A program made the translations under genes and the position numbers. The notes beneath the pieces are model-generated. The model searched no databases. It was not told where the DNA came from and was given only the letters and a program-made list of their open reading frames with translations. A DNA stretch of 5,774 bases from Methanobacteriota archaeon (GTDB taxonomy: Archaea; Thermoplasmatota; Poseidoniia; Poseidoniales; Thalassarchaeaceae). The DNA is taken from positions 13,203 through 18,976 of the forward strand of contig NYXJ01000015.1 of NCBI GenBank assembly GCA_002685315.1. The letters are read 5' to 3'. Below, one piece after another: positions 48 to 5,774 of this stretch. Each line of letters opens with the position of its first letter. Positions within the stretch are counted from its first letter, which is position 1.

Positions 48-794
48 ATGGCTGAATTTGTAAACCTAATCAAATATCTAAAAGGTAGGATTACTCTATT
101 AATTGGGGTCTTCATTTTTGGTTTAGCATTGGGTTATCCGCTTTCTGGAGATGCGATTAGTTGGCTATTGCAAGCTAATGGATACCTCCCTGAAGGAGTT
201 GAATTAATTATTATTCAACCAATGGAAGTAATTTTACTTAGGTTAAGAATTGCAACACAAATAGGCATTGCATTGGTATTTACAATGATAATAGTGGATT
301 TGTCATGGAACGGAAGTAAAATTATTAGTAAATCAAATAAAAATAAGATTAAAAATAATACTTCTAAAATTACGAATTTATTCTTAGTATCCTTGTCCTC
401 AATTGGACTTGGAATAATTGGAGGTATTTATGCTCATAACATACTAATTCCTATGCTTCTTGATTTTCTAGCAAATGATGCAAGCAATGTTGGCTTAACC
501 AACACTTGGCAATTACAATCATGGTTAGGATTTGTAATCGGTCTTTTCTTTGGCTCAGTAATGAGTTTCCAAACACCTTTAGTTACATTGTTACTATTAA
601 GAACTAAAATAATTAGTAGAACCAGTTTGATAGAAAATAGAGGGATTATTTGGTTTGCAGCGTTATTAGTAGGAGCTATACTATCGCCACCAGATCCAAT
701 TTCTATGTTCTTGGTGGGTGGACCAATTGTATTATTATTGGAAGTTGCATTGATGATTGATAAAATATTTACAAAACCTCAATCTTCAGAATGA
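48..794 (+). CDS. tatC: TatC-family twin-arginine translocase subunit (divergent)
   Basis: Predicted polytopic membrane protein of 248 residues with six hydrophobic segments (about 15-32, 66-87, 111-133, 159-186, 199-212, 219-241), the normal TatC length and topology. TatC recognises twin-arginine signal peptides and, with TatA, exports folded proteins. Family marks seen: an L-K-x-R remnant of the N-terminal ELRxR motif (residues 11-14), QPME in the first external loop (57-60), FQTP in helix 4 (174-177) and SPPDP before helix 6 (213-217). The start at 48 is chosen because AGAGGG lies at 31-36, it matches where family members begin, and it overlaps a possible upstream stop in ATGGCTGA. An in-frame ATG at 18 would add ten residues, and the frame stays open to the left edge. 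Oddities: the usual glutamates of the N-terminus, first cytosolic loop and helix 4 appear replaced, and that cytosolic loop (88-109) is Lys/Asn-rich. The family is fairly sure; full Tat activity is not. Confidence 0.85.
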   Translation: MAEFVNLIKYLKGRITLLIGVFIFGLALGYPLSGDAISWLLQANGYLPEGVELIIIQPMEVILLRLRIATQIGIALVFTMIIVDLSWNGSKIISKSNKNKIKNNTSKITNLFLVSLSSIGLGIIGGIYAHNILIPMLLDFLANDASNVGLTNTWQLQSWLGFVIGLFFGSVMSFQTPLVTLLLLRTKIISRTSLIENRGIIWFAALLVGAILSPPDPISMFLVGGPIVLLLEVALMIDKIFTKPQSSE

Positions 795-2614
795 ATCCCT
801 CTATTCCTAGCATCTTCTGCTTGTGCATCTGCACGACCTTGTTCAACATCAACAAATCTCATCATTACTGCCCCAATCAGTATCAAAACTGAGATACTCA
901 ATATTCCTACACGACTGTCATACATAACGGTTAATGTACCATAAAGAAGAGGGCCTATTAAAGCGGCAACTTTACCGAAGAAACCAAAGAAACCAAAGAA
1001 TTCTGCACTTCTAGTCTCGGGAACAATCTGCCCAAACATGCTTCTTGCAAGACCCTGGGAACCACCTAATAGTGTACCCATGGCGCATCCTAATAGTAGA
1101 AATTGGAAACCAACTGCAAGCCCTAGAGGGCCCCAAACATTATCTCTGGCAGCTTCTGGAATAAAATCTAATTTCCCATCTCCAAGACTTGTTGGATGAT
1201 CTACCCCTATGTTAGTCATTGTATCGAGACTACCACCTGAGACACTAACGCTGAATCTTGATTCATCTAATGATTGTAGGAAGGTATTGATTTCAGAGTC
1301 GACTATATCATTTAAAGATAGAACATAGGCCACTTCTGTGTCATCGCCATCAGAATCTGTGACCCAAAAATTCCACTTCATTGTATCGCTCCTATCATCT
1401 ATTTTGACAGGAATGATATGACTCCAATCATTCGCCCATTCCTGCTCATTGAACTCCGAATCTCTATAATCTAACTTTTGTGCTAATTCTGGAACATCAC
1501 TATTAGCCATCTGGACAGTGTAGATATTTTCTTCTTCATCCCAGTCAAATTGTATTTGGTATTCCTCATGTGATTCTAACTCCAATGGTGCGAAGGATAA
1601 TGCCGCAAAACAAAGAACTACCCAACCTACTAAAGACATTGTTAAGGCCTGTTTTGTACCAACCTTTTTCGCAAGTTTTGTGAATAAAATCGCAGATGGT
1701 GCCGCTACGAATTGTATAGCTAGAATTGTTATCATTAAATCTAATCCTGTGATTCCTAGGACTGTGGTTCCGAAGATACCGCCTAATGCAGTAACGGTAT
1801 TTATTCCGTCAATAAAGAAGAAATATGCAATCATGTAAAAGAATAATGTCTTAAATTTGTCGTACTCACCTAGAGTTTTTCTAATCTCACTTAGAGCTAA
1901 TGATGCGGATTCCTTAAAGCCAAGTGATTCCATCTCATTTTCAATAGGGGGTTCAGGCACCCACTTGAATGTCAAATAAGCAAAACCATACCACCACAAT
2001 CCAGATGATGCCATTGCGAATTGTGTGGCCCAAGGTGCATAATCTGTGCCTATTAGTATAGCAATGTGTATAACTAATAGTATACCTCCTCCAAAGTAAC
2101 CATATGCGAATGCAAGATTAGAAATTCTATCCATCTCATCATCCTTCCCCATATGTGGTAAAAGGGCATTATAAAATACACCGGCTCCATTAAGTCCAAT
2201 ATTTGCAAGAACAAACATTACCATTAGCCAAATCCATTGAGTGCTAATTGGAAGGAATGGGGCAGCGAATAGTAAGAAAGTGGAGCCCGCACCGACATAA
2301 GTAAGAATCTTCAGCCACCACATTTTGATAGCACGCCTATCTGCAATTACACCAAGAGATGGACTTACAAAAGCAACCAATAATGCTGCACCTGCAACTG
2401 CAAAAGACCATATCGCATCTCCTGACATTGATTTTCCAAGGACTGTTGTCGTGAGACCATTTGCTTCCAAAAATAATGAAGCAAACCAAACGGGGAGAAT
2501 AGCTGTAGTTACGCTAGTCTCAAATGCTGATTTAGCCCAATCGTAAAATGCATATCCTCTAACTGCTTGTGGGTCGGATTCTCGGTCAAGTTCTATTGTA
2601 TCTGACATGTTCAT
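779..2614 (-). CDS. UMF1/Atg22-type MFS permease with large acidic insertion
   Basis: Membrane permease of 611 residues in the UMF1 branch of the major facilitator superfamily, related to the vacuolar effluxer Atg22 of fungi. The substrate cannot be read from sequence; Atg22 exports amino acids. Diagnostic motifs: YDWAKSAF (24-31) before helix 1, an MFS motif-A-like GVIADRRAIK (88-97), FYNALLP (147-153), RISNLAFAYGYFGGG (163-177), and in the C-terminal half GGSQGLARSMF (517-527) followed by AEFFGFFGFFGK (537-548) and GPLLYG (554-559). Typical relatives have about 420-450 residues; the excess is one hydrophilic block, about 345-491, between predicted helices 9 and 10, which standard MFS topology puts outside the cell. 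It holds about 35 Asp/Glu against 8 Lys/Arg by my count. Start: M1 (2612-2614) or M3 (2606-2608); neither has a Shine-Dalgarno. The 3' end overlaps tatC by 16 bp, tail to tail. Confidence 0.9.
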   Translation of the reverse strand: MNMSDTIELDRESDPQAVRGYAFYDWAKSAFETSVTTAILPVWFASLFLEANGLTTTVLGKSMSGDAIWSFAVAGAALLVAFVSPSLGVIADRRAIKMWWLKILTYVGAGSTFLLFAAPFLPISTQWIWLMVMFVLANIGLNGAGVFYNALLPHMGKDDEMDRISNLAFAYGYFGGGILLVIHIAILIGTDYAPWATQFAMASSGLWWYGFAYLTFKWVPEPPIENEMESLGFKESASLALSEIRKTLGEYDKFKTLFFYMIAYFFFIDGINTVTALGGIFGTTVLGITGLDLMITILAIQFVAAPSAILFTKLAKKVGTKQALTMSLVGWVVLCFAALSFAPLELESHEEYQIQFDWDEEENIYTVQMANSDVPELAQKLDYRDSEFNEQEWANDWSHIIPVKIDDRSDTMKWNFWVTDSDGDDTEVAYVLSLNDIVDSEINTFLQSLDESRFSVSVSGGSLDTMTNIGVDHPTSLGDGKLDFIPEAARDNVWGPLGLAVGFQFLLLGCAMGTLLGGSQGLARSMFGQIVPETRSAEFFGFFGFFGKVAALIGPLLYGTLTVMYDSRVGILSISVLILIGAVMMRFVDVEQGRADAQAEDARNRGIHSED

Positions 2615-2710
2615 ACCTAGGCTCGCGTTGTCTTTTTGACTATTTAGCGTTGGGGCGGATTAGTCTTGGAAAAACGCTTAATTAATTATTAGATATATCT
2701 CGCAAGACAT
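2615..2710. promoter_or_regulatory. Divergent promoter region with inverted AACGCT-WAAT elements
   Basis: This 96-bp gap separates two divergent genes. AACGCTTAAT at 2673-2682 (+) is mirrored by AACGCTAAAT on the minus strand (2651 to 2642), a 9/10 inverted repeat with a 21-bp spacer. Each arm ends 27-28 nt before its own start codon (2711 and 2614). That is where an archaeal BRE plus TATA box would lie for a leaderless or near-leaderless transcript. I therefore read the arms as two back-to-back promoters; a shared symmetric operator is the alternative. A perfect 10-bp palindrome, AGATATATCT, at 2691-2700 lies just before the downstream ATG, too close to be its TATA box, but it could bind a regulator near the transcription start. 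No Shine-Dalgarno precedes either gene. Confidence 0.5.
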
Positions 2711-3850
2711 ATGGACGAAGATGGCGATAAATGGATTCGTCCGAGAGAAAATACTGTCGAGGCTTTAGTTTATGGAATGAATGAATGTGATGGTATTGAA
2801 TTAGACTTGAGACTATCTAAGGACAATAGACTCGTTCTCCATCATGACTCTAAAACAGAGTTTGGAGATTATCCTGAATGTTTGTCATTAGATGAATTAC
2901 CAGATTATGTAGAGCCAATAGAGGATTTATTAGAACAAAAAGATTTCATTAGAAGATGGACTGAAGAAGGAGCATTCACTTGTTTTGAATTTAAATCACC
3001 TCACCCAAGTAGTGGTAAAGCAGGTGGATGGTTCAATGCAAAAGAAAGAGAAAATCACATGATGAAGATGATTGAAGAATTAAATGAAATCCTAGATCCT
3101 ATTGATTTCTCGGAGAGTAGTACTGTAATTTATTCATTTGAACCGAAAATTATTTCTGCATCTAAAAAAGTTAAAACTAAACTGAAATTTAGTAGATTGA
3201 GACCACATATACGCTCATGGGGAAATTGGACATCGCAGAGAATCGTGGCTACACCATCATTTATCCTCAATTCACTACCTCGTTTAATGGACAAACAGAG
3301 AAGAGAAAATTCTCCTATGCTACCATGTTCTCTACAATATCTTAAAGGAATTGAAAGTAACCTAAGTTTAGGTAGAACTGTAGGCTTGGAAGGGAAAAAA
3401 TTAGAAAGATTGACTAAATATAGAAAAGGATATCCGGTTTATGTTTGGCCTTCGAAATCCAATTCAGAGAGAATGCTTCTAGATGCGGGGCTAACTGGAC
3501 TTACTGATGACCTTGCACCAACTTCAGTAACCCTTGAGTCAGGACATGCTAGATGGACAAAACCTGCTACACAACCACTTACTAAAGAACAACGTGTAGA
3601 TTTGGATGGAACTCCAATCGAACAACATTTCTCAAAAGTTAATGAAATGAAAAAAGAGGTTACCCCTTGGCATGAGCTTACTGAAAAAGAGAGGATTGAT
3701 TTCATTTCTAGTTGGAAGAAAAAATGGTCATGGGATAGAGAAATTAATGCATTAATGAAAGAAACCTCGGCATCCAGCTTACCTTGGGAGGCTCCCAGAA
3801 TAATTGGCCATAGAGGTACAGGGAAATCTCATAAAAATGGATCTTCGTGA
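2711..3850 (+). CDS. Glycerophosphodiester phosphodiesterase-like protein, apparently circularly permuted
   Basis: Soluble protein of 379 residues with no signal peptide, matching the GDPD fold (metal-dependent TIM barrel that hydrolyses glycerophosphodiesters to an alcohol and glycerol phosphate). Motifs: RENT (12-15), IELDL with the metal pair E30/D32 (29-33), LVLHHD with catalytic H45 (41-46), FEFK with E93 (92-95), and a C-terminal barrel signature, YPVYVWPSKSNSERM (241-255) then GLTGLTDDLAP (260-270). Normally HRG opens the protein just before ENT. Here it is absent from the N-terminus, and an in-frame TAG at 2690-2692 with no start codon before 2711 excludes a longer one. Instead PRIIGHRGTGKSHKNG (362-377) ends the protein, with H367/R368/G369. 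All expected catalytic residues are thus present, but in permuted order. Residues 275-360 are an extra segment with a charged, helix-like part (322-350). Monocistronic; the stop abuts the convergent citrate synthase stop. The family is well supported; the permutation is my inference. Confidence 0.85.
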   Translation: MDEDGDKWIRPRENTVEALVYGMNECDGIELDLRLSKDNRLVLHHDSKTEFGDYPECLSLDELPDYVEPIEDLLEQKDFIRRWTEEGAFTCFEFKSPHPSSGKAGGWFNAKERENHMMKMIEELNEILDPIDFSESSTVIYSFEPKIISASKKVKTKLKFSRLRPHIRSWGNWTSQRIVATPSFILNSLPRLMDKQRRENSPMLPCSLQYLKGIESNLSLGRTVGLEGKKLERLTKYRKGYPVYVWPSKSNSERMLLDAGLTGLTDDLAPTSVTLESGHARWTKPATQPLTKEQRVDLDGTPIEQHFSKVNEMKKEVTPWHELTEKERIDFISSWKKKWSWDREINALMKETSASSLPWEAPRIIGHRGTGKSHKNGSS

Positions 3851-5020
3851 TTATTCTATTCTTCTAAGGGGTTGATTCTTAGGGATATATTTAGGCCTGT
3901 AAATAGGAGTCCCTCTACCGTCTCTAGCATTCCTCTCATCAAGTATCTGAGCACTTATACCGGCAACTCTCGCCCAACCGAAGAAGGTAGTATAATATTC
4001 AGGCATTCGGAAACCAACTGAATGAAGTAAACTTCCACTTGCAATGTCTACATTAGGATAAGGATTACTTATCTTAGGAATTTCACTAAGAATTGGGGGT
4101 ATTACTTCTCTCAATGCTCTTGCTATCTTGAAATATTCATGATCTGGACATATTTCATCACCTAATTCAAACAATAAACGCGCACGAGGATCTTCGGCTC
4201 TCAATACTCCATGCCCAAAACCATAAATTTTCCTGCGATTAGCCAACTCAGTACGGACGAAATCTTCAATTTCTTTATGATCGGAGGTTCCAATTCTTTT
4301 GACAAATTCTAAACAGGCTTGATTGGCTTGACCATGTAAAGGACCTGAAAGAGCATTCATTGCGCTCGAAATTGAAGAGTAGACAGAGGCCCATCCTGAA
4401 GCAACTGCTTTACCGGAAAATGTCGAAAGATTACCGCCACCATGATCCATATGAAGAATGAAAAAGAATCTTAGTACTCTTTCAATATCGCGGGCTTGTT
4501 CACCTTCAAAACCCATCATATGGACAAAGTTTTCAACTAATCCTAAACCGGGTTTGCGTGGCTTCAGTTTCTCTTTTTCACCGCCTCTTAAACGAAAAAT
4601 TCTAGCCATAACTTCAGGCATTCTAGCAATAAGATTCATTGCGTCAGCCCTTGTATCACCTGTTTTTTCTGCCGTCCCTAAAGCCATTATACCGATTGAA
4701 AGCCATTCCATAGGATGGCCACTACCTGGTGTTAGAGATTCTAAAACTCTGAGCGCACCTGTAGGGATATTTTCGCCTCTTTGTGTTAATTCCGCACGAA
4801 ACTCTTCTGATTCTTCTTCAGTTGGTAATCTCTTATTGAATAGTAAAAATATCACATCTTCTTCTTCCATATCTACTAAATCTTCAACAGGATATCCAAC
4901 ATAGTGAACTCCTTCATAAGGATCAACGAAAGAAGTCTGACAAGTACCTACAGGGACTCCTCTTAGCCCTGAATCTAGATTCTTATCAGTAATCGAAAAT
5001 AATACTTCATCATCTGCCAT
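3851..5020 (-). CDS. gltA: Citrate synthase, mitochondrial/eukaryotic (type I) class
   Basis: Cytosolic enzyme of 389 residues that condenses oxaloacetate with acetyl-CoA to give citrate, opening the TCA cycle. The catalytic triad is intact: H229 in SGPLHGQANQ (225-234), H270 in YGFGHGVLR (266-274) and D325 in NPYPNVDIASG (319-329). Substrate-binding positions also match: H193 in HMDHGGGN (190-197), R274, R351 in WARVAG and R375 in YRPK. Several features fit the animal mitochondrial class (also known in Geobacter) better than the usual archaeal/Gram-positive class. These are GHGVLRxxDPR in place of GHRVYxxxDPR, the PNVDxxSGxLL block with its YYTxxFG continuation (342-348), and the ERNARDG stretch near the end. 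No mitochondrial-type leader is present, and the length fits a complete protein. Start: ATG at 5018-5020, no Shine-Dalgarno. The stop codon lies directly beside the stop of the convergent phosphodiesterase gene. Promoter presumably in 5021-5085. Confidence 0.97.
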   Translation of the reverse strand: MADDEVLFSITDKNLDSGLRGVPVGTCQTSFVDPYEGVHYVGYPVEDLVDMEEEDVIFLLFNKRLPTEEESEEFRAELTQRGENIPTGALRVLESLTPGSGHPMEWLSIGIMALGTAEKTGDTRADAMNLIARMPEVMARIFRLRGGEKEKLKPRKPGLGLVENFVHMMGFEGEQARDIERVLRFFFILHMDHGGGNLSTFSGKAVASGWASVYSSISSAMNALSGPLHGQANQACLEFVKRIGTSDHKEIEDFVRTELANRRKIYGFGHGVLRAEDPRARLLFELGDEICPDHEYFKIARALREVIPPILSEIPKISNPYPNVDIASGSLLHSVGFRMPEYYTTFFGWARVAGISAQILDERNARDGRGTPIYRPKYIPKNQPLRRIE

Positions 5021-5172: not shown

Positions 5173-5774
5173 ATGTCTAAATGGCGCGAACGTCTCAATG
5201 ATTATGATGACGAACATAGACATATGCTAGAAGGTGGCTCTATTAGTCAACTATTTTTGAGCTATTCTTTATCATTCTCACATCCAGTTTTTGTAGGCAT
5301 TGTTTATGCTATTATGATAAATTTAACGTTACTATTACCAATATTTTATGATGGCAATGCAGACTCCGAAGGGTTTTCTAACATCTTACAGAAATGGACC
5401 AATCAAAGTTTGATAATCTTACTATTATGTGCATCTTTAGGCGCCATCTCAGCTATCATCTCATCTCTAGTTAGGTGGCCACCTGTAAGACTTGAGAGAA
5501 GGAGGAGATATCTCTACCCGTTACCCTTCATTGGATTCTTAATCACTACAATTGCAATAATTTTTTCGACTTCTGAAGAATTGAAAATTATAGGTTATTT
5601 CGTCTTATTAGCTCCAGGTCCGCTATATATCCAGATTTCATATGCTCCTAGATGGAGAATGATTGAAAGAATCGACAGAGACTTAGACCCATTTGAAGGT
5701 ATGAAGAAAACAATATTCCGTGAAAATAAAAATGAGGAGTTAATCGAACAAAATTATGACGAGATAGAAAATGC
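5173..5774 (+). CDS. Unrecognised four-helix membrane protein, 3' end beyond window
   Basis: Partial gene: 200 complete codons run open to the right edge with no stop. I do not recognise the family. The protein begins with a charged, His-containing stretch (1-20) without a signal peptide. Four hydrophobic segments follow, at about 39-59, 79-100, 114-132 and 137-156. The loop between helices 2 and 3 is strongly basic (RWPPVRLERRRR, 101-112) and is probably cytoplasmic. After helix 4 comes a hydrophilic tail rich in Glu, Asp, Asn and Lys (157-200) that also begins with basic residues, so both termini are probably inside. Start: ATG at 5173-5175. An in-frame TGA at 5161-5163 rules out a longer N-terminus; M18 is a later alternative. 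It is divergent from citrate synthase across a 152-bp gap, so the two may share control. No catalytic or binding motif is visible, so no function is assigned. Confidence 0.8.
   Translation, partial: MSKWRERLNDYDDEHRHMLEGGSISQLFLSYSLSFSHPVFVGIVYAIMINLTLLLPIFYDGNADSEGFSNILQKWTNQSLIILLLCASLGAISAIISSLVRWPPVRLERRRRYLYPLPFIGFLITTIAIIFSTSEELKIIGYFVLLAPGPLYIQISYAPRWRMIERIDRDLDPFEGMKKTIFRENKNEELIEQNYDEIEN

What the first reader, a model, noticed from the sequence alone, without database searches (positions are those of the whole stretch)
2711..3850. Natural circular permutation of a glycerophosphodiester phosphodiesterase
The N-terminus starts just before the RENT motif, after where HRG should be. The last 18 residues (362-379) read as the missing opening strand: hydrophobic PRIIG, then HRGTGKSHKNG. 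Rejoined end to start, the order becomes HRG - ENT - ExD - HHD - ExK - barrel end, the canonical GDPD order. GHRG followed by TGKS and a longer spacer before ENT resembles the Gde1/GPCPD1-type arrangement. HRG supplies a catalytic His and Arg, so the gene would encode a complete active site only if this tail folds back as strand 1 of the barrel. Strands 1 and 8 of a TIM barrel are neighbours, which makes this geometrically reasonable. I know of no described naturally permuted GDPD, but I cannot search.
Basis: partly seen in the sequence, partly recalled or inferred. Interest (0 to 1): 0.75.

Follow-up and report, generated by a model that had tools for sequence, protein, structure and literature searches.

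The report
Circularly permuted archaeal lipid phosphodiesterase family
A whole order of marine archaea carries an enzyme of the glycerophosphodiester-cleaving family whose first barrel strand, holding two expected catalytic residues, sits at the end of the protein instead of at its start.

Summary
The finding holds up. The ORF at 2711-3850 (+) encodes a 379-residue protein above the Pfam GDPD threshold. The opening strand and HRG motif are missing at the N-terminus (in-frame stop at 2690-2692) and lie at residues 358-371. This is family-wide: 61 of 61 archaeal loci carry the core PW[EGQ]xxRxx[GC]HRGxG near the C-terminus, with synonymous codon change, beside citrate synthase in 61 of 61. 228 of 243 genomes of the order match the profile, two of them only through a canonical GDPD. 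AlphaFold2 makes the tail a confident strand in two proteins 36% identical, and the best-matching solved structures align from model residue 8 or 9 on. Rejoining tail to body raises the Pfam score in 5 of 5 and starts the match at profile position 1. The four weak relatives from outside the order that I read have canonical order. Paper searches found no permuted GDPD. It is a permuted variant of a known family; activity and cis folding are inferred, and active-site distances were not measured.

The parts
2711..3850 (+). Circularly permuted GDPD gene, 379 aa
   Evidence: PF03009 38.4 bits vs cut-off 23.6; AF2 model pLDDT 92.8, pTM 0.91
2690..2692 (+). In-frame stop upstream of the ATG; excludes a longer N-terminus with HRG
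2711..2734 (+). New N-terminus, residues 1-8; residues 1-5 below pLDDT 50
2747..2755 (+). ENT motif, residues 13-15
   Evidence: N14 invariant, E13 nearly invariant in 65 sequences
2798..2806 (+). ExD motif (E30, D32) in strand 28-35, taken as canonical strand 2; metal ligands by analogy
   Evidence: invariant in 65 of 65; ligand role from PMC4926365 (passages)
2843..2848 (+). HD motif (H45, D46); H45 is the second catalytic histidine by analogy
   Evidence: H45 invariant, D46 nearly invariant; passages of PMC4926365
2987..2995 (+). ExK motif (E93, K95); third metal ligand and substrate-binding lysine by analogy
   Evidence: invariant in 65 of 65
3494..3505 (+). Strand 262-265, taken as canonical strand 8
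3521..3781 (+). Helical linker (residues 271-357) joining canonical strand 8 to canonical strand 1; length varies in the family
   Evidence: helices 292-299, 303-316, 325-338, 345-350, block pLDDT 95-98; 62-105 residues from the TD motif to H
3782..3847 (+). Permuted C-terminal tail (residues 358-379) carrying canonical strand 1 and HRG
   Evidence: core in 61 of 61 loci
3800..3811 (+). Strand 364-367, taken as canonical strand 1
   Evidence: DSSP strand, block pLDDT 96; strand 356-359 in L055
3809..3817 (+). HRG motif (H367, R368, G369)
   Evidence: invariant in 61 of 61 loci and 65 of 65 proteins

Best explanation
The gene encodes a naturally circularly permuted glycerophosphodiester phosphodiesterase. 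In the usual order the barrel runs strand 1 (HRG), loop, ENT-helix, strand 2 (ExD) and on to strand 8. Here the old ends are joined by a helical linker running from strand 8 back to strand 1, and new ends were opened in the loop between HRG and ENT. Shown: sequence order, conservation under selection, a confident tail strand in two models, and the GDPD fold. Inferred: the tail folds back in cis as strand 1 between strands 8 and 2; H367 and R368 meet E30, D32, H45, E93 and K95 in one metal-dependent active site; the enzyme cleaves glycerophosphodiesters to a glycerol phosphate and an alcohol, probably in the cytosol. Inferred origin: one event in an ancestor of Poseidoniales, perhaps tandem duplication followed by loss of the first HRG segment and of everything after the second HRG.
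For: Tail core in 61 of 61 loci with synonymous change; HRG in the last 25 residues of 120 of 121 proteins and in the first 60 of none. E30, D32, H45, E93, K95, H367 and R368 invariant in 65 of 65. Tail strand at block pLDDT 96 in two models 36% identical; by my count eight barrel strands only with it. VIA-align: the 34 top rows, most titled GDPD, all start at model residue 8 or 9; for P. furiosus GDPD the match starts at chain residue 22, after its His17 and Arg18 (PMC4926365, passages). Rejoining gains 4.4-7.3 bits in 5 of 5 and moves the Pfam match start from 9-10 to 1. Tail window best in 43 of 44. With a rejoined profile, the listed tail matches of Poseidoniales genomes lie downstream of the body. 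Citrate synthase convergent in 61 of 61.
Against: No coordinates, so contacts are unmeasured and cis folding is not proved. One complete deep member lacks the tail (L101) and one protein has another end (P0098). The canonical profile came from proteins found with a rejoined query, and the unnamed-genome members in it were chosen for having the tail; Pfam is free of both. The two models used alignments that share many rows, and AlphaFold2 knows GDPDs and might place a tail from memory. No activity data.
Confidence: 0.92

Rival explanations
1. The tail completes the active site of a neighbouring subunit: a strand-swapped dimer, not a barrel closed in cis.
For: Terminal strands are common swap elements (general knowledge); no complex was modelled here.
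Against: In the single-chain model the linker is ordered (block pLDDT 95-98) and leads into the tail strand; a linker about 40 residues shorter than the median occurs.
Confidence: 0.06
2. The fold is a permuted GDPD but the enzyme no longer does GDPD chemistry, for instance a phospholipase-D-type reaction or a dead scaffold.
For: The Pfam match covers only residues 11-132, and a PHPSSGK motif of its own follows ExK.
Confidence: 0.1
3. The tail is an unrelated phosphate-binding loop (GHRGTGKS fits the Walker A pattern GxxxxGK[ST]), not GDPD strand 1.
For: The window's tail fits the pattern, and 47 of 61 loci have K at that place.
Against: The K is R in 13 and S in 1 of 61 loci and E in L127 and L128, while H and R, which Walker A does not need, never change in 61 of 61. 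No P-loop family appeared in Pfam at E up to 1.
Confidence: 0.01
4. Assembly mis-join or wrong start codon.
For: None found.
Against: 61 loci in separate records, some named AG-447-I14, AG-313-L18 or AG-333-I22 (recalled as single-cell plate codes); stop 18 bases upstream of the ATG.
Confidence: 0.005

Closest known systems
Glycerophosphodiester phosphodiesterase family (PF03009; solved e.g. 2pz0, 1o1z, 4oec, 7e0v)
   Same: TIM-barrel fold; HR, EN, ExD, HD and ExK residues; profile match over cut-off
   Different: HRG strand is C-terminal; about 90-residue helical linker between strands 8 and 1; new termini in the HRG-ENT loop
P0167, the best-scoring canonical-order protein listed (253 aa, metagenome source)
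   Same: PRIIGHRGTG opening like the permuted tail; HRG-ENT spacing of 14 against 9 in 67 of 81
   Different: Canonical order; E = 1.1e-8 only, so a cousin and not a proven ancestor
Circularly permuted TIM barrels: GH70 against GH13; transaldolase against class I aldolase
   Same: Barrel strands cyclically reordered with the active site kept (PMC11046441 and PMC2213659, passages)
   Different: Other enzyme families; here one strand is moved and the cut separates parts of the catalytic motif
Canonical-order GDPDs in the same order (open frames of 309-335 aa, and of about 200 aa)
   Same: GDPD family; one of each kind confirmed with Pfam (L112, L066)
   Different: HR before ENT; other loci

Membership tests
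GDPD (PF03009) | Pfam profile score above gathering cut-off | tested here: met
   38.4 vs 23.6 bits; rejoined 44.7
GDPD (PF03009) | TIM-barrel fold close to solved GDPDs | tested here: met
GDPD (PF03009) | Active-site residues HR, EN, ExD, HD, ExK present and conserved | tested here: met
   H367, R368, N14, E30, D32, H45, E93, K95 invariant; E13, D46 nearly
GDPD (PF03009) | Linear order HR-EN-ExD-HD from the N-terminus | tested here: not met
   HR is at 367-368, after all the others; no HRG before ENT in the 59 of 61 loci with a readable start region. Hence filed as a permuted variant and not as an ordinary member
GDPD (PF03009) | Metal-dependent hydrolysis of glycerophosphodiesters | not testable with these tools
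   needs purified protein
Circular permutation | Rejoined order matches the parent profile better than native order | tested here: met
   5 of 5 with Pfam; 44 of 44 with a canonical profile, gain 1.0-9.3 bits
Circular permutation | Moved segment takes the same place in the fold | tested here: inconclusive
   Confident tail strand in two models, but no coordinates to measure contacts
P-loop NTPase (Walker A) | Conserved GxxxxGK[ST] | tested here: not met
   K in 47, R in 13, S in 1 of 61 loci; E in L127, L128
Gde1/GPCPD1-type GDPD | Specific similarity to eukaryotic Gde1-type sequences | not tested

The most novel reading that the evidence does not exclude
The permutation is functional rather than neutral: by opening the HRG-ENT loop, both new protein ends would lie at the mouth of the active site, and this changed or gated substrate access, making a distinct Poseidoniales-wide enzyme, perhaps for the order's own lipid or cell-surface glycerophosphodiesters, that canonical GDPDs in the same genomes cannot replace.
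Probability: 0.25. Interest if true: 0.75.

Novelty: new variant of a known kind. Interest (0 to 1): 0.63.

Why it matters
A natural circular permutation that cuts between parts of a catalytic motif and is then fixed across a whole order is unusual. This one is near-universal in the sampled Poseidoniales genomes and sits at one syntenic locus, so the event can be placed on the species tree and tested by rejoining the protein in the usual order. It also accounts for the partial GDPD match and for sources that name some copies hypothetical protein.

Tried and rejected
Walker A reading of GHRGTGKS: rejected, K not conserved. Missed upstream start or frameshifted N-terminal HRG: rejected for the window. 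In one search the rejoined profile reached positions 1-7 upstream of the body in four genomes (G016, G092, G030, G046); I read these four loci and none has an upstream HRG. Genomes with smaller extensions were not read. My first window scan ranked by whole-sequence score, and the tail was best in 0 of 44, because windows repeating the strand-2 motif add a second domain; I judged that a flaw of the measure and re-ranked the same output by best single domain, which gave 43 of 44. The window's own genome is not held. The viral collection was not scanned. P0167's origin was not pursued, and no tree was built.

Papers: (circular permutation with GDPD terms) found 0. One search found 2: PMC3482391, whose held text (300,000 of 357,715 characters) has no 'permuted', so the one occurrence counted lies outside what I could search; and a rice and barley paper seen in the listing only. 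One search found one virus taxonomy paper, listing only. Searches were seen as listings apart from the papers cited by passages. Most subscription journals are not held, so absence from print is not proved.

Full report
What is there. The window holds TatC (18-794, +), an Atg22-like transporter (779-2614, -), the gene in question (2711-3850, +), citrate synthase (3851-5020, -) and an ORF running off the end (5173-5772, +) without a Pfam match. The protein matches Pfam GDPD at residues 11-132, profile positions 9-95, 38.4 bits against a cut-off of 23.6. The match starts after the profile's first eight positions, where HRG belongs. An in-frame stop precedes the ATG by 18 bases, and no + frame from 2300 to 2760 reads HRG. 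HRG stands instead at 367-369, ten residues before the end.

Conservation. A protein search gave 145 relatives, 120 of them listed. Of these 120 and the query, 120 of 121 have HRG in the last 25 residues, none has it in the first 60, and P0098 has another end. A scan of GTDB genomes gave 61 loci, in records titled Poseidoniales, Marine Group II, Thalassarchaeaceae, Poseidoniaceae, Euryarchaeota or Thermoplasmatota. All 61 carry P-W-[EGQ]-x-x-R-x-x-[GC]-H-R-G-x-G. P358, W359, R363, H367, R368, G369 and G371 never change while codons do: arginine 368 uses five codons, glycine 369 four, histidine 367 both. In 59 of the 61 the start region could be read; none has HRG before ENT, and two lack the start. 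In a 65-sequence alignment reaching down to 33% identity, E30, D32, H45, E93, K95, H367, R368 and G369 are invariant. L101 keeps ExD, HD and ExK, and no tail is read in the 240 bases after its end.

Spread. The centre genome is a Thalassarchaeum (L008), of the order Poseidoniales. 228 of 243 genomes of the order match the family profile. Of 40 of these that I searched again because of weak or split matches, two (G038, G131) match only through another, canonical-order GDPD, two (G156, G236) only by a tail at a contig end, and several others are in pieces on different contigs; where body and tail matches lie on one contig, the tail is downstream. With a rejoined profile, 123 of 292 genomes of the phylum match; no genome whose handle first appears there (G245 on) scores better than E = 3.0e-9. 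Four of those weak hits (G283, G301, G404, G451) were read and have canonical order. A search limited to shorter proteins found 289 at E up to 10 and listed 120: 81 have canonical order, 38 score E of 1.6e-12 or better and read as pieces of the permuted family, and one (P0179) has no HRG. The best canonical protein, P0167, opens with PRIIGHRGTG and scores E = 1.1e-8.

Locus. The gene is convergent with citrate synthase in 61 of 61 loci; TatC is found in 50 and the Atg22-like gene in 46 of 61, some loci being short. In L041, another gene replaces the Atg22-like one (its PAP2-like reading is mine, by eye). This points to one old, vertically inherited gene.

Test of the permutation. Moving the tail in front raised the Pfam score from 38.4 to 44.7, 25.7 to 30.5, 48.4 to 52.8, 38.6 to 43.8 and 37.1 to 44.4 bits, and each match then began at profile position 1. 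No other rejoining was run against Pfam as a control. Against a profile from 81 canonical proteins, tail plus residues 1-270 beat the native protein in 44 of 44 members (44 of 85 full-length ones, under 80% identity), mean 6.3, least 1.0 bits. When every 20-residue window was put before its own body, whole-sequence scores favoured windows repeating the strand-2 motif in 44 of 44; by best single domain a tail window was best in 43 of 44, median margin 9.6 bits, and L087's best window lay one residue outside my limit and ends in PWEAPRLIGH, part of the tail. The 81 proteins were found with a rejoined query, so this test is partly circular; the Pfam test is not.

Structure. AlphaFold2 on native sequences gave mean pLDDT 92.8 and pTM 0.91 for the window protein, and 92.4 and 0.92 for L055, 36% identical to it. 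The two alignments share many rows. The tail is a strand in both (364-367 and 356-359; block pLDDT 96). Counting strands of three or more residues and leaving out the short 41-43 (36-38 in L055), there are eight, seven in the body and the tail; the assignment to the barrel is mine. Foldseek's best PDB hits are GDPDs. In VIA-align the 34 top rows, most titled GDPD, begin at model residue 8 or 9; for P. furiosus GDPD (7e0v_A) the chain range begins at 22, after its His17 and Arg18. This is expected if only strand 1 is out of order. I did not check the HRG position in each chain. Coordinates were not given, so contacts were not measured.

How it most likely works. In P. furiosus GDPD the motif is HR-EN-ExD-HD, with His17 and His59 as putative catalytic residues, Arg18 and Lys113 among docked-substrate contacts, and Glu44, Asp46 and Glu109 or 111 as metal ligands (PMC4926365, passages). 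By position these correspond to H367, H45, R368, K95, E30, D32 and E93. The simplest reading is that the tail returns as strand 1 between strands 8 and 2 and restores that site. The new ends would lie in the HRG-ENT loop at the active-site mouth. After rejoining, H and E of HRG and ENT are 15 to 45 residues apart, depending partly on the start chosen (85 proteins), against nine in 67 of 81 canonical relatives. I see no signal or membrane segment by eye, which suggests a cytosolic enzyme, unlike the four canonical GDPDs with open frames of 309-335 residues that start with a hydrophobic stretch (by eye).

What is known. Natural permutation of TIM barrels is known in GH70 against GH13 (PMC11046441, passages) and in transaldolase against class I aldolase (PMC2213659, passages); duplication followed by deletion is one proposed route (PMC2395249, passages). 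I found no report of a permuted GDPD, in a library that lacks most subscription journals. I rate it a new variant of a known kind.

Noticed in passing
window 3848-3853: The permuted GDPD and citrate synthase are convergent with no base between their stop codons; the pair is convergent in 61 of 61 loci.
   Followed up: partly
L101 (reverse strand): A deep family member with the other motifs but no HRG tail and none read in the 240 bases after it: natural loss or a broken gene.
   Followed up: partly
L066 1483-2058, L067 404-1003 (-), L068 1483-2058: A short (191-199 aa) canonical-order GDPD with GHRLGASG in three genomes that also carry the permuted one; in L067 it lies beside an NAD-dependent glycerol-3-phosphate dehydrogenase.
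   Followed up: no
L041 4469-5926 (-): Upstream of the permuted GDPD here is not the Atg22-like transporter but a gene that reads by eye like a PAP2-type lipid phosphatase, and TatC is inverted.
   Followed up: no
window 779-2614 (-): The Atg22-like transporter has a long acidic insertion between its membrane parts, about residues 344-487 by eye.
   Followed up: no
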